A DNA stretch of 19,141 nt. It comes from Nitrospinota bacterium (GTDB lineage: Bacteria; Nitrospinota; Nitrospinia; JACRGO01). The notes beneath the pieces are model-generated. The model had not been told where the DNA came from. It did no database searches and was given only the letters and a program-made list of their open reading frames with translations. Each line of letters opens with the position of its first letter. Within the stretch, counting starts at the first letter, position 1. Position numbers and translations under genes: made by a program. Below, in pieces: positions 1,235 to 16,406 of the stretch. The stretch lies in assembly GCA_016212295.1 (NCBI GenBank), contig JACRGO010000018.1:1-19141 (forward strand), in the 5' to 3' direction.

Positions 1235-1319
1235 ATCTTTTCTTTCTCTGTGTTCTCTGTGCGAGTTTTCTTTGTGCGCTTTGTGGTAAAAAAAAAGAAA
1301 AAGAATTAACCGGATTGTA
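1235..1319. repeat. Partial copy of the ~200 bp hairpin/terminator module
   Basis: These 85 bp repeat the first part of the module that follows directly (CTTTCTCTGTGTTCTCTGTGC, then the CTTTGTGCGCTTTGTGGT word and an A-rich run to GAATTAACC), and then break off into the next full copy. Together with the next three copies this shows repeated local duplication. Confidence 0.75.
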
Positions 1320-1530
1320 ATCTTTTCTTTCTCTGCGTTCTCCGTGCGGGTTTTCTTTGTGCGCTTTGTGGTAAAGAAAAAAAAAGAAAAAAGAATTAAC
1401 CACAAAGGACGCAAAGAATTTTTCACAAAGGCCGCAAATAACCCACAACAAGGAAAAACAGGGCAGCCACGGGAGCTGCCCCTACATGGTTATATTCCAT
1501 TAAACAAAAAAAATCGGGCCGCTCTTTCGC
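1320..1530. repeat. Hairpin/terminator module, copy 1 (right terminator arm deleted)
   Basis: The order of parts is a CTTTCTCTGCGTTC tract, the CTTTGTGCGCTTTGTGG word, an A/G-rich run, the inverted word ACCACAAAGGACGCAAAG, a GGGCAGC/GCTGCCC hairpin (1461-1467 with 1475-1481), an A run, then ATCGGGCCGC. In copies 2 and 3 the last element pairs with a complementary arm to form a terminator. Here the sequence jumps from CTCTTTCG to CATGGCCG, so that arm is missing. It lies just downstream of the first coiled-coil gene, which therefore lacks the terminator its paralog has. Confidence 0.8.
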
Positions 1531-4938: not shown

Positions 4939-4970
4939 GTAAAAAAAATAAAAATTTTAAAAGATAGGGC

Positions 4971-5053
4971 GCAGTTGTCAGGGGGCAGGGGGCGGGATAA
5001 TTTTGAAATAAAGCCGTATATTGCCGGATAACCGCACCCTGACAACTGCATCC
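4971..5053. repeat. Left word tract beside intact four-helix-bundle gene
   Basis: GCAGTTGTCAGGG (4971-4983) is the exact reverse complement of CCCTGACAACTGC (5037-5049), a 13 bp dyad with a 53 bp spacer. In addition, 4979-4989 is an exact 11 bp inverted match to 5423-5433 on the other side of the four-helix-bundle ORF, so that ORF is bracketed by inverted words. Confidence 0.75.
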
Positions 5054-5059
5054 TACGAG

Positions 5060-5422
5060 CTAATTTTGCTTTTTTTCTATCATATTTTCTTTTGCTTTAA
5101 TAAGCCCCACAAGCATGGCTGATATTTCCCTGGTTTCCTTTATCCACTGCTTGCCTGTTTCTTCCGGAATATAGCCTATATCCATTCCAATATAAATTTG
5201 GGTGCGCAATTCACCGCAAGATCCCTTAGCGTATTGCAAAAACTTGATGCAATCTTTTTCTGATCCTCTTTCCATCCCCTCAGCTATATTGCTTGATATT
5301 GACAAACCTGATCGAGTAATTTGATCTTTAAATCCAAAATCCCTAAGAGAGACTAATTCCTTGTAAATATTCGCGCTCAATCGCGCCGCCTTTTTCCATA
5401 CATCCAAGTCCTCAAATTTCAT
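5060..5422 (-). CDS. Four-helix bundle protein (23S rRNA intervening-sequence / S23 family)
   Basis: 120 aa, full length for the family. It has the family hallmarks MKFEDLDVWKKA near the N-terminus, SISSNIAEGMERGSEKD in the middle (the conserved SSNIAEG turn) and a C-terminal helix LVGLIKAKENMIEKK. Four amphipathic helices are predicted by eye. Family members are encoded in 23S rRNA intervening sequences, as Avd accessory proteins of diversity-generating retroelements, and as stand-alone genes of unknown function; no rRNA or reverse transcriptase gene is present here. The ATG at 5422 touches the right-hand word tract and its Shine-Dalgarno-like GGGGGCAGG is part of that tract. It lies 31 bp downstream of the nonaheme cytochrome and could be co-transcribed with it. 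Confidence 0.88.
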   Translation of the reverse strand: MKFEDLDVWKKAARLSANIYKELVSLRDFGFKDQITRSGLSISSNIAEGMERGSEKDCIKFLQYAKGSCGELRTQIYIGMDIGYIPEETGKQWIKETREISAMLVGLIKAKENMIEKKQN

Positions 5423-5540
5423 CCTGCCCCCTGCACCCTGATACCTGCCCCCTTATTCCTGTCCTCCGCTGTCCCCCGCCCTCTGCCTTCTGTCCTCCGT
5501 CTTCTGTCCTCTGTCCTCCGCCCTCCGGCCTCTGCTGCCT
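5423..5540. repeat. Word tract (CTGCCCCC then TGTCCTCCG words) running into a coding region
   Basis: It begins with CCTGCCCCCTG-type words, then passes into TGTCCTCCG, TCTGTCCTC and CCGCCCTCC words. The part from 5453 on encodes the last ~30 residues of the nonaheme cytochrome. Confidence 0.75.
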
Positions 5541-6853
5541 TCCGTCCTCTTTCTTCTAAGCGCTTCCTTTCGTATGCTCTTCCGTTTTTCGTTCAGCGCC
5601 CAGATAAACAAGAGCAAAAACACCCAGGTGAAGATCAACCCGATGTTGCGGATTTTAAGCTCCTTGAATATTGCCTCGATTTCCTCATGCACCTTTTTGG
5701 CCGCGCCGGTGATTTCCTCTGTCCTCTTCTCTAACAAGGGTATATGCATGGTATGGGTCATGGCCACGGTTTTGACAAGCTTGGTATTGGCGTCATCCAG
5801 CTTGTCCCCTAAATTGGAAATCTCGAACCCGGTCCCGCCTTTCTTTTTCAACTCCGCGACCGCGTCCCTGGCCTTCCGGACGGACGCGTCCGCGGTTTCC
5901 AGCATACCTTTAAGCCTTACCCCTTCCTTGAACGCGGGGGAATCCGGGGGATGGCAGCTCCGGCAATCATCAGGCCCGTCTCCGGTGAATTTTTCAACGC
6001 CGGGGAATGGGATATTGTGTTTTCCATGGCAATTAACGCACCTGGGCTTTCCGGTTTCCTCCATTGCCAGGGAATGCTTGCTCTTTGAAAAAAATTCCGC
6101 TGTTACCGAATGGCAATTGCCGCATACCTCAGTCACGTCCTTTGCCCCTGGCGGGGCTGCCCCGTGCCCGCTGTGGCAATCGGCGCAGGTGGGGACCCTG
6201 GGGTCCTCTTTCTCAACCAGCAATTTCCCGTGGTAGCTTTGGAGATAGCCGTCGTATTGGTCAGTGGGGACTTTATACTCAGCCATGTATGCCTTGTCCG
6301 AGTGGCATTTGGAGCAGGTCTTTATAATATTGGGCCGGTGCACGGGGGAGCGTGGGTCCTTCCTGGAAAAAACCGCGTGGGTCCCGTGGCAGTCCACGCA
6401 AGTGGGGACCTTTTTGTCTCTTTCCCCGGCAAGGCGCTTGCCGTGTATGCTTTCCTGGTAATAGGAATACTGGTCGGTCCTAAGATTGTAAACCCGCATC
6501 TTTTTTGAGTCGGCGTGGCATCTGGCGCAAAGGGCGGGTATGTCCTCCTTTTTCGGCTTGCCGGTGAACCCGGCCTTTGCTTCCATTGCCGCGTCGTATG
6601 AGGAGGGGTCGCCGCCATGGCAGTCCTTGCAGGACACGCCTGCCTTTTTGTGGACGCTCAGTTCCCAGTCCGCCGCCGGTTTTTTCAGGCGCTCGTCGTC
6701 AGAAGACTGGTGGCACTCGGCGCAGGTGTTTTCTTCCGTGGCCGTATCCGGCTGGTCCTGGGCAAGGGAGGCGGCGGGGAAAAATGAAAAAGAAAGGAAG
6801 ATAAAAAAGAAAAGAAAGGGAACATAAAAAATTGAACGTCCAACATCGAACAT
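5453..6853 (-). CDS. Membrane-anchored nonaheme c-type cytochrome
   Basis: 466 aa from the chosen ATG at 6853. Nine CxxCH sites occur in order: CAECH, CKDCH, CARCH, CVDCH, CSKCH, CADCH, CGNCH, CVNCH, CRSCH. After a heme-free helical region a membrane helix (IGLIFTWVFLLLFIWAL) anchors the C-terminus. The N-terminal hydrophobic segment before SLAQ is the signal peptide. The reading frame stays open to an ATG at 7039, but that extension only translates the word tract (repeated FDVRRSM, FKVQGS) and the tail of the neighbouring gene, so I chose the last ATG before the signal sequence. It still lies within the tract and has no Shine-Dalgarno. After the membrane helix and a short basic stretch the last ~30 residues (RRAEDRGQKTEDRR) are also translated tract. 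It is placed after the Rieske/b genes as a likely electron acceptor. Confidence 0.85.
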   Translation of the reverse strand: MFDVGRSIFYVPFLFFFIFLSFSFFPAASLAQDQPDTATEENTCAECHQSSDDERLKKPAADWELSVHKKAGVSCKDCHGGDPSSYDAAMEAKAGFTGKPKKEDIPALCARCHADSKKMRVYNLRTDQYSYYQESIHGKRLAGERDKKVPTCVDCHGTHAVFSRKDPRSPVHRPNIIKTCSKCHSDKAYMAEYKVPTDQYDGYLQSYHGKLLVEKEDPRVPTCADCHSGHGAAPPGAKDVTEVCGNCHSVTAEFFSKSKHSLAMEETGKPRCVNCHGKHNIPFPGVEKFTGDGPDDCRSCHPPDSPAFKEGVRLKGMLETADASVRKARDAVAELKKKGGTGFEISNLGDKLDDANTKLVKTVAMTHTMHIPLLEKRTEEITGAAKKVHEEIEAIFKELKIRNIGLIFTWVFLLLFIWALNEKRKSIRKEALRRKRTEGSRGRRAEDRGQKTEDRRQRAGDSGGQE

Positions 6854-6957
6854 CGAACGTCGAACATCGAACCTTGAACCCTGAACCCTGAACCCTGGAC
6901 CTTGAACCTTGAACCTTGAACTTCGAACATCGAACATCGAACGTCGAACGTCGAACG
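6833..6957. repeat. Word tract (CGAACAT / CTTGAAC words), left of frameshifted four-helix-bundle gene
   Basis: About 125 bp of 7-8 nt words: CGAACAT and CGAACGT at both ends, CCTTGAAC and CCCTGAAC in the centre. The segment 6857-6873 is an exact 17 bp inverted match to 7397-7413 beyond the four-helix-bundle ORF. The start codon and first residues of the nonaheme cytochrome lie in this tract. Confidence 0.85.
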
Positions 6958-6983
6958 AAAAGGAGCTACGATTAAAGATTGAA

Positions 6984-7363
6984 TTATTTGGCATTATTGG
7001 GAACTTTCTTCTTTTCAGCGGTTTTGATGCTCGCAACAAAAATCCTTATCAGTTCATCCGTCTCCACTAACACTGAATCAACCATAGAGGCTGGTTTTAA
7101 GAGAGGAACATTTTTAACCAAGCAAAGCCACTATGGGCTTCCCTTAGCTCTTTCAAGCAAATCCGGAGTTTGTGAATAAAATCTTTTAGAGACTCAGCCG
7201 ACTGCGCCTCGCCGTGGTTAGCCAGTGGCGATGTGCCAGAGCGCAATAATTGTCCGGCGACATTATTTCCAGCCCTGGTTTTTGGCAACCGGTCCGTTAA
7301 TTTAACGATAGATGCCGCGAAATTCAGGAGCCTCTTCTCCAGGTCATACTTACTGGCTTCCAT
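6984..7363 (-). pseudogene. Four-helix bundle protein gene with a frameshift
   Basis: The first part (88 codons from the ATG at 7363 to a TAA near 7097) carries subfamily features: GNNVAGQLLRSGTSP, HGEAQSAESLKDFIHKL and KELREAH. Just before that stop the family continues in another frame: translating the minus strand from about 7110 gives VPLLKPASMVDSV, then VETDELIRIFVASIKTAEKK, ending at a TAA at 6984-6986. That is the expected C-terminal helix. One frame change near 7097-7112 therefore splits a ~125 aa gene. It may be a real lesion, programmed, or a sequence error. It interrupts the spacing between subunit IV and the nonaheme cytochrome and is bracketed by inverted word tracts. Confidence 0.8.
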
Positions 7364-7365
7364 TC

Positions 7366-7437
7366 GATGTTCAAAGGTTCAAGGTTAAAAAGTTCAGGGT
7401 TCGATGTTCGACGTCGGACGTTCGATGTTCGTTCTTT
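7366..7437. repeat. Word tract (GTTCGATG / GGTTCAA words), right of frameshifted four-helix-bundle gene
   Basis: The words are the reverse complement of those at 6833-6957, including the exact 17 bp match 7397-7413. The tract fills the gap between the four-helix-bundle start codon (7363) and the subunit IV stop codon (7440). Confidence 0.85.
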
Positions 7438-7439
7438 CA

Positions 7440-7868
7440 TTACGAGAAGTGTCCCCAAACCGCAAGCCCCACCGCGCTGAGGGCGAACAAGACGCCCATC
7501 AACAGGACCAGCTTGCGGCTGCCAGGCAGTCTGTCCGGCCCACGGTCCAGCCAAGGCACTGCAAGTAGTATAAGGACCGGCAATGCCTGGCCGGCGATCC
7601 CGATGATCTTCGGCGCCCATTCCCCAAGAAAGCCGAACTTCTCCGCAACCTTCAAAAACTGGTACCCGGCCAGGAAATACCATTCCGGCTTTATGTGGGC
7701 CGGGGTGCTGAAGGGGTCGGCCTTGTCCCCAAGCTCCGGGGGGAAGAGGGTGGACAAGGTCACCAGCACGCCGACAAGGAAGACGGACAAAATCATTTCC
7801 TTTAAAATATGCTGGTAGAAAGGGGTAGTCCAGCCCAGTTTCGTCTTTTCTTGTTCAGTCATTTTCAT
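7440..7868 (-). CDS. Cytochrome b C-terminal subunit (subunit IV / PetD-like)
   Basis: About 142 aa from the ATG at 7868. Three hydrophobic helices are visible (MILSVFLVGVLVTLSTLF, IIGIAGQALPVLILLAVPWL, LVLLMGVLFALSAVGLAVWG). The key motif PEWYF occurs in HIKPEWYFLAGYQFLKV, the conserved Qo-site loop (PEWY) of cytochrome b and subunit IV. Length and content match the split b6f-type arrangement. An open frame extends to an ATG at 7904, but the extra residues are translated word tract, so a start at 7868 (or 7862) is more likely. It follows the b6 gene with a 123 bp gap filled by a hairpin tract and should act with it and the Rieske protein in quinol oxidation in the inner membrane. Confidence 0.9.
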   Translation of the reverse strand: MKMTEQEKTKLGWTTPFYQHILKEMILSVFLVGVLVTLSTLFPPELGDKADPFSTPAHIKPEWYFLAGYQFLKVAEKFGFLGEWAPKIIGIAGQALPVLILLAVPWLDRGPDRLPGSRKLVLLMGVLFALSAVGLAVWGHFS

Positions 7869-7887
7869 ATTTACATCTCGGAATGAA

Positions 7888-7995
7888 TAATAGTCATTAG
7901 TCAATGGTCAATGGTCATTGAGTCATTAAAAGAAACATGAAACCGAACCAATGACTGATTGACTATTGACCAATGACTCAATGACCATTGACTAA
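7888..7995. repeat. Word tract forming a long imperfect hairpin (CAATGGTCATTGAGT words)
   Basis: The left arm 7907-7927 and right arm 7972-7992 are perfect 21 bp inverted repeats separated by 44 bp, with further related words on both sides. The tract fills the gap between cytochrome b6 and subunit IV. The right arm reaches the last base of the b6 stop codon. Confidence 0.9.
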
Positions 7996-8684
7996 GTTTG
8001 TTTCCTTTCCCGCTTCTTTATCTCGGAAACCGGTTCGGAGATCCCGACCTCCCTGACTATCAGGAGATGGAGGGCCAGCAAACCGCAAAGCGCGGCCGGA
8101 ATTATGACCACGTGCAGGGCAAAAAATCTGGACAAGGTGTACTGTGTGATTTCCTCCCCTCCCCTGATATAGGCTTTCAGATAGGGACCTATATAAGGAA
8201 CAGCCGCGGGTATCTCGGTCCCGACCACCGTGGCCCAGTAGGAAAGCTGGGTCCAGGGGAGCAGGTATCCGGTGAAGGAGAAAACAAGGGCGGAGGAAAG
8301 CAGGCCCACTCCAACCACCCAGTTCAACTCCCTGGGATTTTTATAGGAACCCTGGTAAAAAACCCTGCTCATGTGCAACAGCAGGGTTATGATCATCAAA
8401 TTAGCGCCCCAGGCGTGGAACCCGCGCACCAGCCACCCGAAAGGGATGTTGTTGGTGATGTTCATTACGCTGGCATAAGCCTCTTCGATGGTGGGCCGGT
8501 AATAAATAAGAAGGAGAATGCCGGAAATAACCTGGACCTGAAAAAAGAACAGGGTGGCCCCTCCAAAATAATAGGTCCAGTTGAGGGGAGGGACCTTTTT
8601 TAGCAGGTCCTTTTCCACCAGTTCCCAGACCCCATACCGCTCGTCAAGAAAATTCCAGATTTTTTGGAACACGGATTTTATCAT
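7992..8684 (-). CDS. Cytochrome b6-type subunit of a Rieske/cytochrome b complex
   Basis: 230 aa, the size of a split cytochrome b6 N-terminal subunit, with four membrane helices. Heme b ligands are recognisable as H90 (RGFHAWGAN), H104 (LLLHMSR), H191 (FFALHVV) and H206 (LLALHLL). The interval between the last two (15 positions) is the b6 pattern; bc1-type cytochrome b has 14. GYLLPWTQLSYWA matches the conserved cd-region, where GxLLPWxQMSfWg is usual. The start at 8684 gives MIKSVFQKIWNFLDERYG, a good family N-terminus. It lies between the Rieske gene upstream and subunit IV downstream, so the three core subunits are encoded together. Membrane quinol oxidation is the expected role; the acceptor is not fixed by sequence. 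Confidence 0.93.
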   Translation of the reverse strand: MIKSVFQKIWNFLDERYGVWELVEKDLLKKVPPLNWTYYFGGATLFFFQVQVISGILLLIYYRPTIEEAYASVMNITNNIPFGWLVRGFHAWGANLMIITLLLHMSRVFYQGSYKNPRELNWVVGVGLLSSALVFSFTGYLLPWTQLSYWATVVGTEIPAAVPYIGPYLKAYIRGGEEITQYTLSRFFALHVVIIPAALCGLLALHLLIVREVGISEPVSEIKKRERKQT

Positions 8685-8695
8685 AAATATAAAAC

Positions 8696-8811
8696 GTCAT
8701 GTGTCATGAGTGGTGAGTCATGGGTCATGAGTTGTGAGTTGTGAGATGGGCGTCATGCGCCGCGGGTCTTTACCGGACACATGACTCATGGCTCATGACA
8801 CATGCCTCATT
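8696..8811. repeat. Word tract (TCATGAG / GTGAGTCATG words) with inverted arms
   Basis: The exact 13 bp inverted pair CATGTGTCATGAG (8698-8710) and 8792-8804 flanks a GC-rich centre. Related words (GAGTCATGGGTCATGAGTTGTGAG) extend the left arm. It fills the gap between the Rieske and b6 genes. Confidence 0.85.
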
Positions 8812-8818
8812 TTCCCCT

Positions 8819-9265
8819 TCAAACCAACTGTATTTTATCTCCATCCACCCGGACCTCGAAGGACGGCAGCGGCTTTGGGGCCGGGCCTCCCTTGACTTGG
8901 CCGAACCTGTCGAAAACGGCCCCGTGGCATGGACACTGCAACTCCTTGGCTTCCTCATTCCACTTGACCACGCACCCCAGGTGTGTGCATGTGGCTGACA
9001 GGGCAACCACTTCCTTCCCCTGGCTATGGATAATCACTATAGGGGCGTCCTTATACCGGACCATCTTGGCGCTGCCTTCCGGGACCTCGGCCAGGGGGAT
9101 GGAGAATTTCTCGTCCTCCATGGCCCCGGGTTCCATCTTAACTGGCGATATATAGCGGATAATAGGATACAGGACCCCGCCGCCGAAGGTGGCCAATAAG
9201 AGGGCGATGAAAAGGTCCAGGAAGGACCTTCTGCCTATATCATCTTTTTGCGTGGATATTTCCAT
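8819..9265 (-). CDS. Rieske [2Fe-2S] protein of the cytochrome b complex
   Basis: 148 aa from the ATG at 9265. An upstream TTG at 9286 is possible but lies in a repeat palindrome. A twin-arginine-like RRSFLDLF precedes a membrane helix (FIALLLATFGGGVLYPII), which fits Tat-dependent insertion of folded Rieske proteins. The cluster-binding boxes are complete: CTHLGC (C, H, C) and, 12 residues on, CPCHG (C, C, H), followed by GGPAPKPLPSFEV, the conserved Pro loop. The two boxes share the cysteine pair that forms the stabilising disulfide. The gene is 134 bp before cytochrome b6 and follows the pentaheme cytochrome. It should shuttle electrons from quinol to a c-type cytochrome in the periplasm. 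Confidence 0.95.
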   Translation of the reverse strand: MEISTQKDDIGRRSFLDLFIALLLATFGGGVLYPIIRYISPVKMEPGAMEDEKFSIPLAEVPEGSAKMVRYKDAPIVIIHSQGKEVVALSATCTHLGCVVKWNEEAKELQCPCHGAVFDRFGQVKGGPAPKPLPSFEVRVDGDKIQLV

Positions 9266-9270
9266 TTTTA

Positions 9271-9304
9271 CCTTTTCAATTTTCAATTGACAATTGTCAA
9301 TTTT
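9271..9304. repeat. Word tract with an 18 bp perfect palindrome
   Basis: AATTGACAATTGTCAATT (9285-9302) is a perfect palindrome beside repeated TTTTCAA words. It occupies the junction between the pentaheme cytochrome stop and the Rieske start and is the smallest example of the tract architecture, with no spacer. Confidence 0.8.
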
Positions 9305-9310
9305 AAATTA

Positions 9311-10462
9311 TTACCGCACCGCCATGCTGTCCCTGGCCATTTCAAGCTGCATGGTTGTCCTGTCCAGAATAAACGGGCTGTACACATAGTCAACCCAGGC
9401 CGTTACATTTTTCAATTTCGCGCCTGTCGCGTAGAACGTGAAAACCTCCCGCCTGGTCTCGCCGGGCTTGAGGCGATTGTCCTTTAGTATCTGCATGGGG
9501 CCGCCAAGCATCACTTCGCTTTCATCCTTCAGTTCCCTTCCATCCATATCGGCCAGAATTTTTTCATAGGCGATCTTCTCGCGGAACACACGGCCCTCGG
9601 CGCCGGACAGCTCCACGTTCAGAATCAGTCGCCGGGTAGGAGTTCCGGTGGGGACCCTGTGTCCTGATCCCATATTGGAGATGTCCACCATGACCTCGGT
9701 GCGGGCCTCGCCCACGTTAATGTTTATAACCTTCACATCTATGGCCTTCTTCAATTGCATAAGGGAGTGGCCGCCAAGGAGATTATGCTCATTGATGGTC
9801 CTCTTGGGGCCGGCGTCGGAGCCGGCTACTATCTGCCCCATGATCGCGGGCATGTGGCAGTCCTGGCACTGTTTGCCCTTGGCCGGGTATGGCCCTTCCT
9901 TCCATTCGCCGTAAGTCCCTATGATGGAGACCCCGTTTTGCGATTTATATTCGTGGCAGCCGGCGCAGAACTCGGCGGTCTTGTGCAACTCGGAAAAGGC
10001 GATCTCGTGTTTTCCCTTCAGGTCCTTCCCGTCCTTAAACGGCCCCCGTTTGACCAGCCCTATCTCCTTTATATAAGGATCGGACGCCTTGAGGTCAACC
10101 GCCTTTACAGTATGGCAAAAGTCGCATGAGACCCCTTCCTTGGTTATTGGAAGCTTCTCATCGAAATCCCCCGTGAACCTTACTGTCGGGGCGTGGCAGG
10201 GGAGACATATATTTTTCGCTGCCCCGGAGGTCTTGCGATAAGCCAGGTTGTACGCGGTGTTGAAAATAGGGTCGTCCATGGCGTGGGCATGAATGGAGTC
10301 CTTCCATCTATTATAAATATGCTCATGGCATTTCCCGCAAACAACGCTGGAGGTGTATTTATCGGTTTCCACCTTTGGAGTTTCCTCGGCCAGGGCCATG
10401 AGAGGGGAAAAAATCATGTTTAAAAAAACGTATAAAAAGATGGAGCGGCGAAAAATATTCAT
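9311..10462 (-). CDS. Periplasmic pentaheme cytochrome c (cytochrome c554-like N-terminal part)
   Basis: 383 aa. After a signal peptide (1-25, ending ALA) there are five CxxCH sites: CGKCH (42-46), CLPCH (86-90), CDFCH (113-117), CAGCH (166-170) and CQDCH (199-203). The opening pattern VCGKCHEHIYNRWKDSIHA resembles cytochrome c554-type multiheme proteins. Residues ~210-383 carry no heme and look like a beta-rich domain. It contains GHRVPTGTPTRR, a GHxxPTG motif seen in multiheme cytochromes of metal- and sulfur-respiring bacteria. It is the first gene of the Rieske/b6/IV block and its stop is 45 bp from the Rieske start. It is a likely electron partner of the complex; a catalytic role of its own cannot be excluded. 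No clear Shine-Dalgarno precedes the ATG at 10462. Confidence 0.87.
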   Translation of the reverse strand: MNIFRRSIFLYVFLNMIFSPLMALAEETPKVETDKYTSSVVCGKCHEHIYNRWKDSIHAHAMDDPIFNTAYNLAYRKTSGAAKNICLPCHAPTVRFTGDFDEKLPITKEGVSCDFCHTVKAVDLKASDPYIKEIGLVKRGPFKDGKDLKGKHEIAFSELHKTAEFCAGCHEYKSQNGVSIIGTYGEWKEGPYPAKGKQCQDCHMPAIMGQIVAGSDAGPKRTINEHNLLGGHSLMQLKKAIDVKVININVGEARTEVMVDISNMGSGHRVPTGTPTRRLILNVELSGAEGRVFREKIAYEKILADMDGRELKDESEVMLGGPMQILKDNRLKPGETRREVFTFYATGAKLKNVTAWVDYVYSPFILDRTTMQLEMARDSMAVR

Positions 10463-10487
10463 ATATATAAGGATAAAAGAAAGTAAA

Positions 10488-10537
10488 AAGTGACTGAGGT
10501 GAACTAAAGTTAGAAGTGAGCTGAAGTGACTAAAGTT
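10488..10537. repeat. Word tract (GTGACTAAAG / GTGAACTAAAG words)
   Basis: Related words (AGTGACTGAGGTGAACTAAAG, AGTGAGCTGAAGTGACTAAAG) repeat directly in the 5' leader of the pentaheme cytochrome. No inverted partner is seen. Confidence 0.65.
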
Positions 10538-10563
10538 TTAGCCGCTTAATAGGAAACCGCACT

Positions 10564-10592
10564 ATCTTTACAAAATCCGCGGCTATAGTCAA
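10564..10592 (-). promoter_or_regulatory. Candidate promoter of the cytochrome/Rieske block
   Basis: On the minus strand TTGACT (10592-10587), 17 nt, then AAAGAT (10569-10564). The -35 is good but the -10 is poor, so this is tentative. It would give a leader of about 100 nt that includes the word tract. Confidence 0.35.
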
Positions 10593-10762
10593 GGGGGGAA
10601 AAGCTTAACGCTTCGGAGATTCCACGACGATTCCTGAGCAGGTTGGCCGTGGAATAAAGCCCATGTTTTTATCCGCATGCCGGCATAGCGCGGCGCATGG
10701 CCGCAACCAAAATAAATTTCGATGCACTCAAACGTTCGATGATATTATTACGTGGAGTGGCG

Positions 10763-11221
10763 CTATTTCTTGACGGGCCTTTTGCCTTTCACCAGCGCCC
10801 TTCGATAATCAATCACGTCCTTGTAGTCAACGGACCTGGCCCCTATCTCCATCACCGCTTTCCCTTTCTGGTCGAATTGCTCCGTCCTTACCGCCTCAGC
10901 GTAGATTTCCTTCATTTTTCCCAAAGGGGACCTGAAGAAAATCTGCAGGATATCGCCGTGGATAATATTGGCGGAAGACTGAAACCGCAAGCCTGTCGGG
11001 GAAATGTCTATAATCTCGATTTTGTGCTCCTGATTGAAAAACTCCCTTTCCCTCTCTATTATGCAAACGCCTGCTATGCGCGTTTTGAAACGGTCTCCAC
11101 CGGCGCGATGATCGTATTTCTCTCCGGTATGGCGAAGGAGTTCTTCTATGAAATTCCTCGCCTCCTGTAGCTCCTCGAAGGTCAGGTCGTTCAGGATTCT
11201 GATCAACTTTTCGTTGACCAT
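10763..11221 (-). CDS. PilZ-domain protein (probable c-di-GMP receptor)
   Basis: 152 aa. Residues ~1-35 are helical (LTFEELQEARNFIEELLRH). The PilZ signature follows: RFKTR at 44-48 (RxxxR) and DISPTG at 72-77 ([DN]xSxxG) within IIDISPTGLRFQ, then beta strands (GDILQIFF, AVMEIGARSVDY). Both c-di-GMP-binding motifs are intact, so binding is plausible. No second output domain is present, so it would act by protein-protein contact. The ATG at 11221 is separated from the HtrA stop codon by one base, which implies co-transcription and probably translational coupling. The link suggests a cell-envelope or surface response, but the target is not evident. Confidence 0.85.
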   Translation of the reverse strand: MVNEKLIRILNDLTFEELQEARNFIEELLRHTGEKYDHRAGGDRFKTRIAGVCIIEREREFFNQEHKIEIIDISPTGLRFQSSANIIHGDILQIFFRSPLGKMKEIYAEAVRTEQFDQKGKAVMEIGARSVDYKDVIDYRRALVKGKRPVKK

Positions 11222-11222
11222 G

Positions 11223-12659
11223 TCAGCCCTTTACGGTGACAGCTATGAAGACAGTCCCGCTCCCTCTCTTTATCAGGAAGAGGATGTTGTCGCCGGCCTT
11301 TGCGTTTTTTAATGTGTCCTCGTATTCTGCCAGGTTCTTGATTTTTTTCCTGTTGATCTCTAAAATCACGTCTCCTCTGCGGATGCCCGCCTCGCCGGCG
11401 GAACTCCCGAACTCCACATCGGAAACCAGAATGCCTTCGGATGAATCCAGTTTAAGGCTGTCGGCCAGATCAGGGGTGATTTCCTGGACGTTCAATCCAA
11501 GTTTTTTGGATACCACATCAGGCGTTTCCGCTGAATCCTTTAGTTTATCTATGACCACCCGGAAGGTTTTGCGTTTCCCGTCCCTGATTGTCGTCAACTC
11601 CGCGTCCTTTCCAGGTTTAGTGGCTGCCACCAGTTTCGGCAATTCCTCCATGCTGGAAACCTTCTTGCCGTCGAATTCCACTATGACGTCGCCGCGGCGG
11701 ACCCCGGCCTTTTCCGCCGGGCTGTCCTTCACCACATCGCCGACGAGCGCCCCTTCCGTATTGGCCAAGCCAAAGGAAGCCGCCATTTCAGGGGTTATTT
11801 TCTGGATCAACACCCCCAGCCAGCCCCTGGTCACCGAGCCCTTGGTCTTCAAGTCCTCCAGAATCTGCTTAGCCATGTTGATCGGCAAGGCGAAACCTAT
11901 GCCTATATTGCCCCCCGTATTCCCGGCTAAAATGGCGGTATTTATGCCGATGACCTCGCCTTTGGTGTTGATCAGCGGGCCTCCGCTGTTGCCTGGATTA
12001 ATGGAGGCGTCCGTCTGGATATAGTCGTCGTATGGGCCGGACCCGATGGTCCTGCCCTTGGCGCTGACAACTCCGACCGTGACCGTATGGCTCAGGCCGA
12101 ATGGATTGCCGATTGCCAGGACCCACTCGCCAACCTCCACCCTGTCCGAGTCCCCCAGTTTTAAAGCGGGAAGGTCGCCTTCCCCTTTTATCTTTATCAA
12201 GGCGATATCGGTTTTGGGGTCAACGCCGACAATGTCAGCGCTGTATTCCTTTTGGTTCATCAAGGTGACCTTTATTTCATCCGCGTTGGACACCACGTGG
12301 CTGTTGGTGAAGATGTGGCCTTCCTTGTCGATGATGAAGCCGGAGCCAAGGCTCTGCCTCGGGGCATTTAAATTAGGATCGAAAAAACGGTCGAAAAAAT
12401 CCTGGAACGGACTGTTGTTGAAGGGGTCCTCCCGGAAGCGTTTTTTCATGTGAGGCGCTTCCTTCGCCTTAGTGGATGTGCTGATGTTCACGACCGCCGG
12501 GTTTTCCTTTTTCGCTATTTCCGCGAAAATATTTTTTTCGACAATTTCGCCTATATTATTGGCCGCTTCCGTTGGACGGAAGGCCATTAAGGAAAAGACG
12601 AAGAGGCCGGCGGCCAAAATGTTGTGCGAGATTATTTTTCTTGATTTGAAGGGTTTCAT
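11223..12659 (-). CDS. degP: Do-family periplasmic serine protease (HtrA/DegP-like)
   Basis: 478 aa, normal for the family. A signal-type hydrophobic stretch (~13-28) ends at EAA. The catalytic triad is intact: H121 in TNSHVV, D151 in KTDIALIKI and S225 in NPGNSGGPL. Two PDZ domains follow, at ~285-365 (GWLGVLIQ, GALVGDVVKDSPAEKAGVRRGDVI) and ~385-475 (GILVSDVEFGSSAGEAGIRRGDVI). The linker near 78-95 (DPFNNSPFQDFFDRFF) is the LA-loop region of DegP-type enzymes. It degrades or refolds damaged envelope proteins. A Shine-Dalgarno AAAGGA lies 7 bases before the ATG. It is transcribed divergently from the small membrane protein at 12866 and is followed by the PilZ gene. Confidence 0.95.
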   Translation of the reverse strand: MKPFKSRKIISHNILAAGLFVFSLMAFRPTEAANNIGEIVEKNIFAEIAKKENPAVVNISTSTKAKEAPHMKKRFREDPFNNSPFQDFFDRFFDPNLNAPRQSLGSGFIIDKEGHIFTNSHVVSNADEIKVTLMNQKEYSADIVGVDPKTDIALIKIKGEGDLPALKLGDSDRVEVGEWVLAIGNPFGLSHTVTVGVVSAKGRTIGSGPYDDYIQTDASINPGNSGGPLINTKGEVIGINTAILAGNTGGNIGIGFALPINMAKQILEDLKTKGSVTRGWLGVLIQKITPEMAASFGLANTEGALVGDVVKDSPAEKAGVRRGDVIVEFDGKKVSSMEELPKLVAATKPGKDAELTTIRDGKRKTFRVVIDKLKDSAETPDVVSKKLGLNVQEITPDLADSLKLDSSEGILVSDVEFGSSAGEAGIRRGDVILEINRKKIKNLAEYEDTLKNAKAGDNILFLIKRGSGTVFIAVTVKG

Positions 12660-12730
12660 AAGGGGTCCTTTAAAAAAAAGTAAGTGAGGGGAAAAATCAT
12701 TTTTTGAGGGAATTAAAGCTCTATAAATTT

Positions 12731-12759
12731 ATGATATCATAGGAAATTCAGGCGCGCAA
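12731..12759 (-). promoter_or_regulatory. Candidate promoter of the htrA-pilZ unit
   Basis: On the minus strand TTGCGC (12759-12754), 17 nt spacer, TATCAT (12736-12731): four of six and five of six matches to sigma-70. It lies ~72 bp upstream of the HtrA start, in the 206 bp divergent gap. Confidence 0.45.
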
Positions 12760-12865
12760 TAACTCTTAAACCCATGGCGCGACAAGAAGCGGTTGAAAAA
12801 TTTGCGCGAACAACACAAATTTCAGAGCGTATATATAAGCTAAATTTTACATTTACGAAGGTAAA

Positions 12866-13276
12866 ATGCAAAATCCACGCTTTTCAAAATCCGCCTTTTT
12901 GATTGCCGGAGCGCTTAATTTCGCGGTCTCCCTCTGGCTCTGGTTTTATTATGATTTCATGCTTAAGGAGGTGATGCGGCTTCCGCTCAAGGACTCCGTC
13001 TATTTTGAATTGATACTGCGGGGGTTTTTGGTTTGCGTTGTGACTTTCGGGATTGGTTATTTTCGGGTGGGGATGAGACCAGAGCGGAACCTGGACCTTT
13101 GCCTGCTTTCCTGCATCGCCAAGGTGGGATGGCCTGCTTTATATCTTTATTATTGCATCACGCACGACTTCTTCCAGTACGGGGCGAATTCCCTGGTCTT
13201 GCTCTGGCCGGCCCTCTACGACTTGGCCTTCCTCCCCTTTTTTATCCGTTCTTTCCTGGCCATTAAAAGATGGTAG
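12866..13276 (+). CDS. Small four-helix membrane protein of unknown function
   Basis: 136 aa with four likely membrane helices (~8-27, ~46-64, ~78-96, ~107-128) and a high aromatic content (LWLWFYYDF, LYLYYCITHDFFQY). I do not recognise the family. Shine-Dalgarno GAAGG precedes the ATG. The final codons, TGG and TAG (13271-13276), are the reverse complement of the tRNA-Val 3' end, so the stop codon overlaps the convergent tRNA gene by six bases. It is divergent from HtrA. Confidence 0.8.
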   Translation: MQNPRFSKSAFLIAGALNFAVSLWLWFYYDFMLKEVMRLPLKDSVYFELILRGFLVCVVTFGIGYFRVGMRPERNLDLCLLSCIAKVGWPALYLYYCITHDFFQYGANSLVLLWPALYDLAFLPFFIRSFLAIKRW

Positions 13277-13346
13277 GCGGAACAGGGATCGAACCTGTGA
13301 CCCTCGGCTTGTAAGGCCGATGCTCTCCCGGCTGAGCTATCCGCCC
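13271..13346 (-). tRNA. tRNA-Val (anticodon UAC)
   Basis: On the minus strand the 76 nt gene reads GGGCGGA acceptor, a D arm with AGCTCAGCCGGGAGAGC, anticodon stem TCGGC/GCCGA around loop CTTACAA (anticodon TAC, reading GTA codons), T arm with GGTTCGATCC, acceptor TCCGCCT, discriminator A, and an encoded CCA. All stems pair, with a G-T at the end of the acceptor. The CCA and discriminator (13271-13274) lie in the end of the convergent membrane-protein gene. Confidence 0.97.
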
Positions 13347-13357
13347 GTTTTTATATT

Positions 13358-13387
13358 ATTGTATAGACTTTTAACTCATCGTGTAAT
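13358..13387 (-). promoter_or_regulatory. Candidate tRNA-Val promoter
   Basis: On the minus strand ATTACA (13387-13382), 18 nt, then TACAAT (13363-13358), ending 11 bases before the mature tRNA 5' end. The motif quality is moderate, but the position fits a tRNA with a short leader. Confidence 0.4.
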
Positions 13388-13424
13388 GATATATAATACC
13401 ATGATTAAATTTTAAATTAAACCA

Positions 13425-13458
13425 TTCCTTAAGGAAAGTTCTAAAAAAACAGTATAAT
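13425..13458 (+). promoter_or_regulatory. Palindrome and -10 element just before the methyltransferase
   Basis: TTCCTTAAGGAA (13425-13436) is a perfect 12 bp palindrome 16 bp before TATAAT (13453-13458). The TATAAT ends only five bases before the ATG at 13464, so a transcript from it would be essentially leaderless. The palindrome occupies the -35 position and could be an operator or activator site. Confidence 0.4.
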
Positions 13459-13463
13459 TTTTT

Positions 13464-14102
13464 ATGAAAAACAGACTTTACCAATTATTCATTGATGATG
13501 TAACGGATTTGTGCTACAAGAACTGCCTTTCCTACTTTCCGGAAAAATCGCGGGTGCTGGACGTGGGAATCGGAAACGGCGTGATGACGAGGAATTACCA
13601 TTCCTTGATAAAAAACAAGGACTTCAGGATCACTGGGATTGATATAAATAAGAGCTATCTCAACCACTGCGACCGCCTTATCCGGGCCTATCAACTGGAG
13701 AACAATATTCAGATTTTTCATAAATCAGTGGAAGCCTATGCCCCTCCACAAAAAGAGTACTTTGATTTTATTCTTTTCAGTATGAGCTTCATGCTCTTTC
13801 ATAACCAGCAAATTGTCCTGGACCGGGTAAGGCATTGGCTTAAACCAGAGGGAAAGATAGTTTTTTTCCAGACCATGTTTCAAAAGCGCTCACGGTTAAT
13901 GGAGTTCGTGAAGCCAAAACTGAAGTATTTCACCACCATAGATTTCGGAAAGGTCACCTACGACCACGATTTCTATCACCTCCTTGAAAGAAACCATTTG
14001 TCCATCTTTGAGGATAAGTTGCTGAAAAGGGAGTGGTTCAAGGGGGAATACCGGATTATTGTCACCTCCGTTTCCAATGGGAATGGCGGAGGGCATAGAT
14101 GA
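13464..14102 (+). CDS. Class I SAM-dependent methyltransferase
   Basis: 212 aa. SAM-binding motif I is VLDVGIGNGVM (~31-41), followed by the acidic residue ending beta-2 in FRITGIDINKSYL (~54-66). A post-I/IV region DFILFSMSFMLFHNQQIVLDRV fits the methyltransferase_11/25 fold. The substrate cannot be read from sequence. It is not an obvious ArsM, since the conserved arsenic-binding cysteines are not seen in the expected arrangement. No Shine-Dalgarno is apparent and a TATAAT lies immediately upstream. It ends convergently with the DUF115 gene across an inverted word tract. Confidence 0.82.
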   Translation: MKNRLYQLFIDDVTDLCYKNCLSYFPEKSRVLDVGIGNGVMTRNYHSLIKNKDFRITGIDINKSYLNHCDRLIRAYQLENNIQIFHKSVEAYAPPQKEYFDFILFSMSFMLFHNQQIVLDRVRHWLKPEGKIVFFQTMFQKRSRLMEFVKPKLKYFTTIDFGKVTYDHDFYHLLERNHLSIFEDKLLKREWFKGEYRIIVTSVSNGNGGGHR

Positions 14103-14128
14103 CAGGGTTTGACGCAACAAAAAAAAAA

Positions 14129-14262
14129 GCAAAATTACAAATGACAAATAGCAAATTACAAATAAATTGCAAACTACAATTACCGAATGCCCAAAACAAT
14201 TCCATTTCCTTGTTTGTCATTTGTAATTTTGGTTATCGGGATTTATTTGTTATTTGACAATT
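14129..14262. repeat. Word tract (AATTACAAATGACAAA words) with inverted arms
   Basis: The segments 14131-14148 and 14213-14230 are perfect 18 bp inverted repeats. The left arm is followed by more TAGCAAATTACAAATAAATTG words and the right by TTTATTTGTTATTTGACAATT. It lies between two convergent genes and reaches the DUF115 stop codon. Confidence 0.85.
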
Positions 14263-15191
14263 CACTTGGCCTTTCGTTGCAGAAGCTTTTCCAGTTTCCA
14301 TTCCACGTTCACCCTTTCTCCGCAAAAAAGATTGATCCCCTCGGCTAAGGGCATTTGCTCGCAAAGGCCGGATAGAATCCCGTCCTCCGAGCAATTTATT
14401 GGACGGGAGGGATTTGGACGGCTCCACTCCTTGAAGGCCCAATTGAACCAGGTCTTGGTCACGGACATGGACTTGAGCGTGGGGGTCTCCCGCCCAAAAA
14501 TATTTTTCTCCATTACCATGTGCTCCCCATCGCGGAGAAGGATGATGTCCTGGCAATCGTTTTCAACCATGTCATAAACGGTCCCGGTTGTATGCCCCTT
14601 CCCCTTGGGGAAGGAAAGGTCCTGCCCTATGAAGATGATAGGGTTGGCGCCCAGTTGAAAGGCGAGGTCATAGGAGATGGTCAGGACGCTCCCGCCTGGG
14701 GTGAGGACCCCAACATGCTGCGCGTCCTTTTGGATCTGGGTCAGTACCGGGATGTCCGGCGCGAATTTGTTGAAAAAAAGGACGGCCCCCTTCCAAAGGC
14801 GGAGTATCTTGGGGTGGACTATGGTCGGGGCGACCAGTCTAAGGCCGCGTGTGTCAATGCCCCAAAAAAACCTGATGATGGATTCCTGGGGATCTAGGAC
14901 GGTAACAAAATTGGGCTTGATCCCCTCGGAGAGCAGGGTGGCAAGGGCGGCGTCGCAAGCCACTATGATGGACCGCTGGGCAGCCCATTTAAGAAATTTT
15001 AAATTCTTGTCCAGGGAAGGGCCGGCCCCAACGAGAATACAGGGAATGTCCTTTAATTGTCCCCTTATTTTAGGGACCCCGGTCCCTTGCAGGACCGCCG
15101 GACGGTTGGCCCTGTAATTATTCAGCCACGCCTCCGAAAAACGGTCGATGGTGGCGGTTTTTACCTCTGCAAGCCTGGATTCGAATTCCAT
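14262..15191 (-). CDS. DUF115 / MptE-like (Maf-type) protein
   Basis: 309 aa. The core matches the 6-hydroxymethylpterin diphosphokinase MptE-like/DUF115 family: PCILVGAGPSLDKNLKFL (~49-66), then SIIVACDAALATLLSEGIKPNFVTVLDPQES (~73-103 as two blocks), TPGGSVLTISYDLAFQLGANPIIFIGQDLSF further on. Bacterial members (motility accessory factors) are linked to transfer of nonulosonic-acid sugars to flagellins or to glycan synthesis. Usual Maf proteins are about twice this length, so this is a short form with little beyond the catalytic-like core. No flagellar or sugar genes are in the window, so its role is open. The start is the ATG at 15191. Confidence 0.82.
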   Translation of the reverse strand: MEFESRLAEVKTATIDRFSEAWLNNYRANRPAVLQGTGVPKIRGQLKDIPCILVGAGPSLDKNLKFLKWAAQRSIIVACDAALATLLSEGIKPNFVTVLDPQESIIRFFWGIDTRGLRLVAPTIVHPKILRLWKGAVLFFNKFAPDIPVLTQIQKDAQHVGVLTPGGSVLTISYDLAFQLGANPIIFIGQDLSFPKGKGHTTGTVYDMVENDCQDIILLRDGEHMVMEKNIFGRETPTLKSMSVTKTWFNWAFKEWSRPNPSRPINCSEDGILSGLCEQMPLAEGINLFCGERVNVEWKLEKLLQRKAK

Positions 15192-15227
15192 ATCGTGAGT
15201 CTATCAAAAAAGATTTAAATTTAAATG

Positions 15228-15421
15228 GAACGCGGATGACACGGATAAAACGGATTTGCGCGGATAAAAAAAAATTGTAACTATCTAGTGTTTTGAAAAA
15301 AACAAAAAATTAAAAAATAAAGAAAAGAATATAGACACAGAAGGACACTTATTATCTATGATTAAAAACAAAAAGCATAAAAAATCCGTGTAAATCCGTA
15401 TAATCAGCATCATCCGCGTTC
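15228..15421. repeat. 194 bp element with inverted ends (CGCGGATGACACGGAT words)
   Basis: The ends GAACGCGGATGA (15228-15239) and 15410-15421 are exact 12 bp inverted repeats. Each continues inward as related ACGGAT words (CACGGATAAAACGGATT on the left, AATCCGTGTAAATCCGTAT on the right). The ~120 bp centre is AT-rich and has no ORF. No target-site duplication is visible. It lies between the DUF115 and ArsS genes. Confidence 0.8.
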
Positions 15422-15431
15422 TATTTCTTTT

Positions 15432-16406
15432 TCAAAAAACCAAGCCAGAGCGGATCTCCCCGCCGCAGCTCGACCCTCTTCCGGCCGCGCATCCGAAGCA
15501 ATGGTCTCCCACCATAATTTCCCTCTTTTTCAGCACTTCTAAATCGAAGCCGGACAACAAGGAGGCGGCCCCATGATTCACCGTGAGCTCCAGCATCTGG
15601 TTGAAATCGCAATCGAAAATCCTTCCGTCCCAACTGATGCTCAACATTTTCCTGCACATCAGTTCCGGGATTGTCTCCTTGTTGAAATTCTTTTTCAGAA
15701 TGGCGGCGTAACTCTCGTAATTGCCGCCCTTCAACAAGGTCTCCTTGAAGCGGCCTATGGGCATATTGGTTATTGCTAAGAGCTTGTTGAAAACTATTCC
15801 GTGCCTGCCTTGAAGCTCGCGCTTGTAATCCGATTCCAGGGCGTCCTGGCGTCCTGGCAGAACAGCCCCTGCCGGATTATAAACAAGATGGAGCGCCAAG
15901 CCGCTTCCTTCCTTTCCATAGCCTCGATCATTTAATAACTTCAAGGCCTGAATGCTTAACTTATACACGCCAGCGCCCCTTTGCGAATCCACGTTCTTCT
16001 CCAGATAGCAGGGGAGCGATGCGATTATCTCCACGCGGTTTTTAACTAAAAGGCCGATCAACCGTTCGTTCCCAGGAAGGAGGAGGGCGCTGAGATTGCT
16101 CCTGAGAATGGCCTTTTTGCCCAGGCTGGCCGCCCCTTCCAACAGGTATCCCAACCCCGGATGCAGTTCAGGGGCGCCACCGGTTATGTCGAGAGTGTGG
16201 ATTTCGTTCTCCGCCAGGACCTTCAGGACCATGCCCATTGTTTCCCTGGACATGAATTCAGTTTTTTTGTCCGGTCCCGCGTCCACATGGCAATGGAGGC
16301 ATCTCTGGTTGCAATGCCTTCCTATGTTGACCTGGAGGGTATCAATCCCGTCCGCCATGAGCGGGGAGTGGATTGCCTCGTATACCTTGGAGCTGAATTC
16401 GGACAT
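15432..16406 (-). CDS. arsS: Radical SAM protein of the ArsS (arsenosugar biosynthesis) family
   Basis: 324 aa from the ATG at 16406; a TTG at 16436 would add ten residues. The radical SAM cluster motif is CNQRCLHC (C32, C36, C39) in TLQVNIGRHCNQRCLHCHVD, very typical of this family, followed by DITGGAPELHP (GGE-like SAM motif). A C-terminal Cys-rich segment (CRKMLSISWDGRIFDCDFNQML, then HCFGCAAGRGSSCGG) matches the family. ArsS proteins add the 5'-deoxyadenosyl group of SAM to dimethylated arsenic. No arsM or other ars gene is in the window, so the arsenic role rests on family resemblance. Some relatives carry selenocysteine, but none is needed here. The TTG start would lie two bases from the restriction gene stop codon, suggesting co-transcription. 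Confidence 0.82.
   Translation of the reverse strand: MSEFSSKVYEAIHSPLMADGIDTLQVNIGRHCNQRCLHCHVDAGPDKKTEFMSRETMGMVLKVLAENEIHTLDITGGAPELHPGLGYLLEGAASLGKKAILRSNLSALLLPGNERLIGLLVKNRVEIIASLPCYLEKNVDSQRGAGVYKLSIQALKLLNDRGYGKEGSGLALHLVYNPAGAVLPGRQDALESDYKRELQGRHGIVFNKLLAITNMPIGRFKETLLKGGNYESYAAILKKNFNKETIPELMCRKMLSISWDGRIFDCDFNQMLELTVNHGAASLLSGFDLEVLKKREIMVGDHCFGCAAGRGSSCGGEIRSGLVF

What the first reader, a model, noticed from the sequence alone, without database searches (positions are those of the whole stretch)
4971..15421. Locus-specific word tracts with inverted arms across the window: one architecture, many sequences
Most intergenic gaps hold runs of a 7-15 nt degenerate word, and the word differs at every locus (CAATGGTCATTGAGT, CGAACAT, TCATGAG, AATTACAAATGACAAA, CGGATGACACGGAT and others). 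In most cases the reverse complement of that word lies across a spacer. Exact inverted matches read from the sequence: 21 bp (7907-7927/7972-7992), 18 bp (14131-14148/14213-14230), 18 bp palindrome (9285-9302), 17 bp (6857-6873/7397-7413), 13 bp (8698-8710/8792-8804), 12 bp (15228-15239/15410-15421), 11 bp (4979-4989/5423-5433). Since no word is shared, homologous copying between loci does not explain them. A process that generates local inverted word arrays (foldback synthesis, template switching, or an enzyme) would. Function could be transcript ends, protein sites or parasitic DNA.
Basis: partly seen in the sequence, partly recalled or inferred. Interest (0 to 1): 0.75.

Follow-up and report, generated by a model that had tools for sequence, protein, structure and literature searches.

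The report
Word-armed mobile elements encoding S23 protein
The odd inverted word tracts between genes are the arms of small, apparently mobile genetic elements built around one ring-forming protein of unknown function; each protein lineage carries its own 7- or 8-letter DNA word, which offers a testable origin for the heptamer repeats long seen without explanation in many bacteria.

Summary
The inverted word tracts are real (six of seven stated pairs exact, the seventh shifted by one base), but "no word is shared" is wrong. Two of the seven arm pairs bracket genes for the 23S-rRNA-IVP / S23 four-helix-bundle protein (PF05635); the genome holds 18 such loci. IVP genes found by protein alone carry word-array inverted arms in 116 of 143 loci, in 24 of 30 from ten further genomes, and in 9 of 10 on cyanobacterial plasmids; outer-flank controls give 2 of 131. 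Words have a period of 7 or 8 nt, differ between IVP lineages and are shared within a lineage across many phyla (Mantel r=0.43, P=0.001; opposite-strand control -0.05). The ORF-less tract at 14115-14255 has at least 29 full-length copies here and none in a congener. Four relatives without IVP genes show no word arrays in 562 kb; genomes with IVP show 35-410 per Mb. ORF-bearing elements (about 484 bp) fill gaps between genes in operons, in sense orientation (95 of 107). Best reading: mobile or formerly mobile elements whose pentameric IVP probably binds its own word array, plus ORF-less derivatives. Binding and transposition chemistry are inferred. This links rRNA intervening sequences with unexplained bacterial heptamer repeats.

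The parts
5060..5422 (-). Element A: gene for 23S-rRNA-IVP / S23 / TIGR02436 four-helix-bundle protein, 120 aa, intact
   Evidence: PF05635 E=7e-34; TIGR02436 and PRK12275 subfamily
5421..5453 (-). Element A: 5' arm (sense of IVP), word CAGGGTG / CAGGGGG, period 7
   Evidence: 85% complementary to 4966-4998; arm score 43 against null 99% of about 25
4966..4998 (-). Element A: 3' arm
   Evidence: same word at another IVP locus L016
5465..5534 (.). Adjoining one-armed array of TCTGTCC words, about 10 copies
   Evidence: TRF; homologous places elsewhere in own genome and in G001
7097..7363 (-). Element B: IVP gene of another lineage, 88 aa, C-terminal part lies in another frame (decayed copy)
   Evidence: PF05635 E=8e-10, TIGR02436; C-terminal part read in another frame; nucleotide relatives in G001 C499
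7369..7436 (-). Element B: 5' arm, word GAACATC (TTCGATG on + strand)
   Evidence: 58-nt arms 78% complementary; arm score 62
6826..6956 (-). Element B: 3' arm, about 17 GAACNTC words
   Evidence: TRF 17.6 copies of period 7; 17 related places in 556 kb of own genome
7890..7994 (.). Element C: ORF-less hairpin of GTCATTG words between cytochrome b and petD-like genes
   Evidence: 21-bp exact arms, RNA z=-5.6; absent at the orthologous junction of G001; word shared with IVP locus L006
8693..8812 (.). Element D: ORF-less hairpin of GTCATGA words between cytochrome b and Rieske genes
   Evidence: 29-nt arms 86% complementary, z=-4.7; the orthologous G001 junction carries a different word
9268..9310 (.). 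Element E: short palindrome of TTTTCAA / CAATTGA words
   Evidence: 18-bp palindrome; 9 related places in the sample; word resembles the arms of L014
10480..10537 (.). One-armed array, word AAAGTGACT, same as IVP loci L009 and L012
   Evidence: 15 related places in the sample
14115..14255 (.). Element F: ORF-less element, AAATNNC words, member of a dispersed family
   Evidence: at least 29 full copies 85-94% identical in own genome, 0 in congener; word shared with IVP locus L011
15214..15265 (.). Element G: arm of CGGATGACA / CGGATAAAA words
   Evidence: 52-nt arms 77% complementary to 15384-15435; related copies in G001
15384..15435 (.). Element G: opposite arm
1235..1440 (.). CTTTGTG / CACAAAG octamer-word tract, the word of the widespread L021-type IVP lineage; related tracts at 2200-2290 and 3055-3150
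   Evidence: word compared with IVP arms in many phyla
194..231 (.). TAACTGA-word tract, the heptamer reported in Beggiatoaceae (PMC4679880)
   Evidence: TRF CTGATAA 5.4 copies

Best explanation
The tracts are the arms of one superfamily of small mobile, or formerly mobile, genetic elements. SHOWN: the full form is about 0.48 kb, a single gene for a four-helix-bundle S23/IVP protein (PF05635/TIGR02436) bounded by two inverted arms, each an array of roughly five copies of a partly degenerate 7- or 8-nt word. Each protein lineage has its own word and word length, shared across phyla. ORF-less derivatives with the same kind of arms are dispersed in the same genomes. ORF-bearing elements sit in gaps between genes, starting about 2 nt after a stop codon and ending about 11 nt before the next start, in sense orientation with the host operon; the one ORF-less family tested has no such bias. 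The IVP is under purifying selection. INFERRED: the IVP is expressed by read-through; its homopentameric ring (known for the Xanthomonas S23 protein) binds one arm array, about one word per subunit, pairs the two arms, and so marks its own element and ORF-less copies with the same word for copying into new gene junctions. The strand-cutting or copying enzyme is not in the element and must come from the host or another element.
For: Arms at IVP genes chosen by protein alone: 116/143 (own 13/14, relatives 43/51, named 60/78) against 2/131 outer flanks; 24/30 in ten genomes reached through named loci of several phyla, outer 1/29; 9/10 on cyanobacterial plasmids; ordinary ORFs 4.5-7.3% against 7 of 8 IVP ORFs in the same sample. 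Word tracks protein lineage: Mantel r=0.43, P=0.001, opposite strand -0.05; CwrAG cores spaced exactly 8 nt 277 times against 0-3 at spacings 5-7 and 9-12, confined to one IVP lineage; word length shared by 97% of pairs above 70% protein identity against 36-51% below 55%. ORF-less arrays match own IVP words in 48% against 1.3% for permuted words. Word arrays 0 in 562 kb of four IVP-free genomes of the class against 35-410/Mb in IVP-bearing ones. Dispersal: at least 29 copies, 0 in congener. Presence/absence at orthologous junctions. Orientation 95/107 sense on both sides, ORF-less 11 against 7. Position and length. Purifying selection, median dN/dS 0.16. Pentamer: PDB relatives 2gsc and 2rld with five chains, homopentamer torus stated in PMC4990558; median 4.6-4.9 words per arm.
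Against: No transposition event has been observed, and no enzyme, target-site duplication or exact insertion chemistry was found; the only reverse transcriptase detected in the genome is a group II intron type. About half of the ORF-less arrays do not match a word of an IVP arm held from this genome, and element D has no relative in the 556-kb sample. In Flavobacterium the element is fixed at one junction (gmk-nadD according to PMC5524665) in all 21 loci examined, which fits domestication or a host function as well as mobility. No IVP binding data exist here; the ring-word model rests on word number and on published pentamers, and words per arm vary widely (5-95%: 2.3-13.9). The periods and word counts were measured on arms already selected for complementarity.
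Confidence: 0.78

Rival explanations
1. Local generation: foldback synthesis or template switching makes a new inverted word array at each locus.
For: Arms of one element resemble each other more than the arms of orthologous elements in sister species (P=1e-4), which foldback copying would produce; the arms show no sense-strand G-U bias (117 against 123), so selection for RNA pairing is not evident.
Against: Words recur genome-wide and across phyla with the IVP lineage; arrays are absent from the IVP-free genomes sampled; an independent local process would not link word to protein lineage.
Confidence: 0.07
2. Host regulation: the arrays are binding sites or transcript-processing hairpins used by the cell, and IVP is a host RNA-binding regulator whose gene carries its own sites; no mobility.
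For: Strong purifying selection on IVP, sense orientation in operons, conservation at one Flavobacterium junction in 21 loci, stable hairpins; Geobacter and Beggiatoaceae authors proposed regulatory roles (PMC2700814, PMC4679880).
Against: Presence/absence at orthologous junctions and a lineage-specific burst of copies; random orientation of ORF-less copies; decayed IVP copies with stops or frame breaks; very patchy occurrence among relatives.
Confidence: 0.13
3. Ordinary simple-sequence repeats: heptamers expand by polymerase slippage (long simple sequence repeats), and inverted pairs arise by chance or by inversion.
For: Array lengths vary in whole units, and heptamers are the commonest long repeat class in many bacteria (reviewed in PMC4679880 and PMC4692102).
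Against: Slippage explains neither inverted pairing around one protein family, nor word-protein linkage, nor absence from IVP-free relatives, nor full-length element copies with non-repeat cores.
Confidence: 0.02

Closest known systems
23S rRNA intervening sequences (IVS) with S23p/IVP ORF (Leptospira, Coxiella; PMC4990558)
   Same: Inverted complementary arms around a PF05635 ORF; Coxiella IVS of 428 nt is close to the 484-nt median here; sporadic distribution and inferred horizontal transfer.
   Different: Here the elements lie between protein genes, not in rRNA; many copies per genome; arms are arrays of lineage-specific 7/8-nt words. RNase III excision untested.
Cyanobacterial STRR heptanucleotide repeats (Calothrix, Nostoc)
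   Same: Tandem heptanucleotides, intergenic, several words; on cyanobacterial plasmids such arrays flank IVP genes in inverted pairs in 9 of 10 loci.
   Different: Described as simple repeats; in the papers read here they are not linked to an encoded protein.
Xanthomonas GGGAATC and Nostoc GGGGA(C/T)T heptamers (PMC4692102)
   Same: Heptamer with fixed and free positions (GGGANTN), majority of four units, 70-75 inverted pairs per Xanthomonas genome, intergenic; the solved S23 protein XCC0516 (2gsc) is from Xanthomonas campestris.
   Different: Interpreted there as G-quadruplex repeats; the terms S23 and four helix do not occur in the paper. Flanks of XCC0516 could not be read here.
TAACTGA repeats of Beggiatoaceae, cyanobacteria, Bacteroidetes (PMC4679880)
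   Same: Intergenic heptamer arrays with patchy phylogeny suggesting horizontal transfer; the same word occurs at window 194-231.
   Different: No inverted pairing as a rule, no protein linked; regulatory role proposed.
DGR accessory protein Avd
   Same: Homologous fold family (weak match NF033474; homology noted in PMC10053308).
   Different: No DGR reverse transcriptase or template repeat found; the genome's one reverse transcriptase is of group II intron type.
MITEs, REP/BIME elements with RAYT transposases
   Same: Short palindromic, intergenic, dispersed, ORF-less copies alongside ORF-bearing ones.
   Different: No transposase or RAYT in the element; termini are not conserved between families but are word arrays.

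Membership tests
23S rRNA intervening sequence (IVS) | Encodes a PF05635/S23 protein or is an ORF-less counterpart | tested here: met
23S rRNA intervening sequence (IVS) | Bounded by complementary arms able to form one stem | tested here: met
23S rRNA intervening sequence (IVS) | Located inside a ribosomal RNA gene | tested here: not met
   window holds no rRNA, only a tRNA; elements lie between protein genes
23S rRNA intervening sequence (IVS) | Excised from the transcript by RNase III without religation | not testable with these tools
   needs RNA experiments
STRR / long heptanucleotide simple repeats | Tandem 7-nt units, intergenic, several words per genome | tested here: met
   period 7 or 8 in 110 of 116 armed IVP loci
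Diversity-generating retroelement | Avd with a DGR reverse transcriptase and template/variable repeats | tested here: not met
   one reverse transcriptase in the genome, group II intron type, on a contig without an IVP locus; template/variable repeats not searched
MITE of a known insertion sequence | Termini shared with a transposase-encoding element | tested here: inconclusive
   words are shared with IVP-encoding elements, which encode no recognisable transposase; no insertion-sequence library was searched
MITE of a known insertion sequence | Target-site duplication | tested here: inconclusive
   flanks of 30 copies show no consistent duplication by eye; ends are ragged

The most novel reading that the evidence does not exclude
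A previously unrecognised, phylum-crossing superfamily of mobile elements in which a ring-shaped pentameric protein recognises a repeated 7- or 8-nt word, one word per subunit, with protein lineage and word co-evolving as a readable code; the elements mobilise without an encoded nuclease or polymerase, and are the common source of bacterial heptamer repeats and of 23S rRNA intervening sequences.
Probability: 0.4. Interest if true: 0.95.

Novelty: new variant of a known kind. Interest (0 to 1): 0.85.

Why it matters
Heptamer repeats in cyanobacteria, Xanthomonas, Geobacter and giant sulfur bacteria have lacked an origin, and the S23/IVP protein has no known function although its structure has been solved. 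Linking them gives both a testable explanation: the protein's target is written next to its gene, differs by lineage, and can be read from sequence. It would also show how a 0.5-kb element with one small gene that resembles no transposase spreads across phyla by occupying gaps between genes in operons.

Tried and rejected
Rfam: only a tRNA in the window. RNA-level selection on the arms: sense against antisense wobble mismatches 117 to 123, so no support. DGR origin: only one reverse transcriptase, group II intron type. Phage carriage: no match in 50,697 phage records for the L021 IVP. TAACTGA across the phylum: one hit in 77 genomes; no IVP tested for there. A first scan with a protein alignment failed for lack of conserved stretches; one protein (L021) was used instead, so the 80 named loci come mostly from its lineage, and one search was added as a broader check. 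One literature search (with the term bAvd) returned noise. The AlphaFold job for the element A protein (alignment A3) was still queued at the end, so no predicted-fold evidence is claimed. Target-site duplications were looked for in 30 copies and not found.
Full report
CHECK OF THE OBSERVATION. Six of the seven stated inverted pairs are exact as written, and the 6857/7397 pair is exact after a shift of one base. Longer imperfect arms were found by the repeat finder. Against dinucleotide-preserving shuffles, the tracts at 7870-8010 and 14103-14261 (P<=0.016) and at 8685-8818 and 9240-9320 (P<=0.033) exceed chance; the tract at 15192-15431 is marginal, and other gaps are not significant by longest exact match alone. 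The word periodicity is plain: Tandem Repeats Finder gives period 7 or multiples for most tracts. So the architecture is real.

Two of the arm pairs (4979/5423 and 6858/7397) bracket small genes. Both encode the 23S-rRNA-intervening-sequence protein family PF05635 / TIGR02436, also called S23 or four helix bundle protein. The second is a decayed copy, its C-terminal part lying in another frame. The own genome (3.74 Mb in 237 contigs) has 18 PF05635 loci. Reading their flanks shows the same design with other words: TTAGCGA, GTTCACGG, GTCATTG, AATTACG, AAATTAC, GATTTGAG and others. Several words are those of the ORF-less tracts in the window (GTCATTG at 7890-7994; AAATTAC at 14115-14255; AAAGTGACT at 10480-10537).

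STATISTICS OF THE ARMS. For IVP genes selected only by protein similarity, the 220 nt upstream was aligned with the reverse complement of the 220 nt downstream. Of 143 loci, 116 exceed the 99% shuffle level (own 13/14, relatives 43/51, named species 60/78), while flanks 500-720 nt away do so in 2 of 131. A further set of 30 IVP loci from ten genomes, reached through named loci of several phyla, gives 24 (outer flanks 1 of 29); some of these are loci already counted among the named set, the others are IVP genes of other lineages. Ten IVP genes on cyanobacterial plasmids give 9. Ordinary ORFs in the own-genome sample give 4.5-7.3%, IVP ORFs in the same sample 7 of 8.

WORDS FOLLOW THE PROTEIN LINEAGE. 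Over 116 armed loci, protein identity and arm-word similarity correlate (Mantel r=0.43, P=0.001); the same test with one arm reversed, which keeps base composition, gives -0.05. In the lineage found with the L021 protein (Planctomycetota, Nitrospirae, Elusimicrobia, KSB1, Lentisphaerae, Kiritimatiellae, SAR324, Syntrophaceae, Sumerlaeota, Caldithrix, Desulfobacterota, Verrucomicrobia, Bacteroidota), many arms share an octamer with a CwrAG core. These cores are spaced exactly 8 nt 277 times, and at spacings 5-7 and 9-12 only 0-3 times; no own-genome locus and 1 of 58 relatives' loci of other lineages show the pattern. The best period is 8 in 61 and 7 in 49 of 116 loci; pairs above 70% protein identity share the period in 97% of cases, pairs below 55% in 36-51%. 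The number of words per arm has its median at 4.6-4.9 with a wide spread.

DISPERSAL. The ORF-less element at 14115-14255 has at least 29 full-length copies, 85-94% identical, in the own genome (40 scored, 29) and no match in the only congener held, G001. Thirty copies align over the whole element and have unrelated flanks. In 556 kb of the own genome most other window tracts have 5-42 related places (the CACAAAG tracts 1-2; the TAACTGA tract, one element A arm and element D none), while 75 shuffled queries have none. ORF-less arrays away from IVP genes match words of own IVP arms in 48% of cases against 1.3% for words with permuted columns. Four genomes of the same class without IVP genes show no word arrays outside long ORFs in 562 kb; four genomes with IVP genes show 35, 66, 105 and 410 per Mb, the G001 and G015 samples being small.

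PRESENCE AND ABSENCE AT ORTHOLOGOUS SITES. G001 has the same operon. Where the window has element C between the cytochrome b and petD-like genes, G001 has only 8 nt between the aligned stretches against 138 here. At the next junction, cytochrome b to Rieske, G001 carries a tract with another word (AAAGTACCTAAAG). The junction that holds element A is free of IVP and of words in G001 (552 nt against 1106 nt between aligned stretches). At the element B position the G001 contigs end in a third word (AACGCAGAGGCGCAG).

POSITION, ORIENTATION, SELECTION. Armed IVP elements have a median length of 484 bp (443-516); the 5' arm starts a median 2 nt after the upstream stop codon, and the 3' arm ends a median 11 nt before the next start. 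They are co-directional with the upstream gene in 104 of 111 cases, with the downstream gene in 100 of 112, and with both in 95 of 107; only 4 are antisense to both. The ORF-less family shows no such bias (11 against 7) and none of its 30 copies lies inside an ORF. The simplest reading is that insertion has no preferred orientation, but ORF-bearing elements persist only where host transcription expresses the IVP. Coding sequences are under purifying selection (median dN/dS 0.16).

ARMS CO-EVOLVE. Twenty-one Flavobacterium loci lie at one orthologous junction (the F. columnare annotation in PMC5524665, places a four helix bundle gene between guanylate kinase and nicotinate-nucleotide adenylyltransferase). 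There each 5' arm is closest to its own 3' arm beyond chance (P=1e-4), while core letters of the word are retained throughout. Mismatches between arms show no excess of sense-strand G-U pairs (117 against 123), so pairing at the RNA level is not supported; copying between arms, or recognition of each arm by the protein, fits better.

MECHANISM. Shown: unit structure, word-protein linkage, dispersal, junction preference, sense bias of ORF-bearing copies. Inferred: relatives with solved structure are 2gsc and 2rld, each with five chains, and PMC4990558 states that the Xanthomonas S23 protein is a homopentamer forming a torus. A ring of five subunits and arms of about five words suggest that one ring binds one arm, one word per subunit, as the TRAP protein does with its repeated triplets (analogy from general knowledge). 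Bringing two arms together would mark the element for copying by an enzyme supplied from outside. That enzyme is unknown; no target duplication was found, and the one reverse transcriptase in the genome is of group II intron type.

RELATION TO KNOWN THINGS. Elements with S23 ORFs and complementary arms are known as intervening sequences in 23S rRNA (PMC4990558); those here fail the defining location, so they may work like them but are not members as defined. Heptamer repeats were described in Beggiatoaceae, cyanobacteria and Bacteroidetes (PMC4679880), Xanthomonas and Nostoc with many inverted pairs in Xanthomonas (PMC4692102), and Geobacter as putative regulator sites (PMC2700814). Text searches for S23 and four helix in PMC4679880 and PMC4692102 found nothing, and a combined search of the open library found no paper joining them. 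Subscription papers are not covered.

LIMITS. The genome and most relatives are draft assemblies from uncultured organisms; gene calls in the scripts are simple ORF rules; the 80 named loci come from one IVP lineage and many are Bacteroidota, so counts are not independent events. The predicted structure did not finish in time.

Noticed in passing
window 1147-3280: A segment carrying a small membrane coiled-coil gene (1545-2072 and 2457-2930) is directly duplicated at 83% identity over 932 nt, with CACAAAG-word tracts on each side; recombination between tracts may have made it.
   Followed up: partly
window 31-82: Palindromic repeat CCCCTCTTGAGAGGGGTGGCCGAAGGCCGGGGTGTG, about 20 hits in 556 kb of the own genome; also next to IVP locus L012. 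Not a word array.
   Followed up: partly
window 10670-10720: A GC-rich mini-hairpin GCGCGGC-GCATG-GCCGCAACC with 27-30 related hits in the sample; a like hairpin forms the left end of most copies of the 14115-14255 family.
   Followed up: partly
L260 and L266: On two cyanobacterial plasmids the IVP element sits between cas6 and cas4 of a CRISPR operon (type I-D in Anabaena sp. 90).
   Followed up: no
L261: In Nostoc edaphicum pNe_5 the IVP element lies antisense between the two ribonucleotide reductase subunit genes, an exception to the sense rule.
   Followed up: no
L167-L195 right flanks: Some copies of the 14115-14255 family carry an extra 3' hairpin CATAAAACTTTGTTTTTTTAGCAAAGTTTTATG with a T run, somewhat like an intrinsic terminator.
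   Followed up: no
G001 C499: Two G001 loci match the element B IVP region (window 7012-7354 and 6919-7199), so this lineage with its GAACATC word is present in both species.
   Followed up: partly
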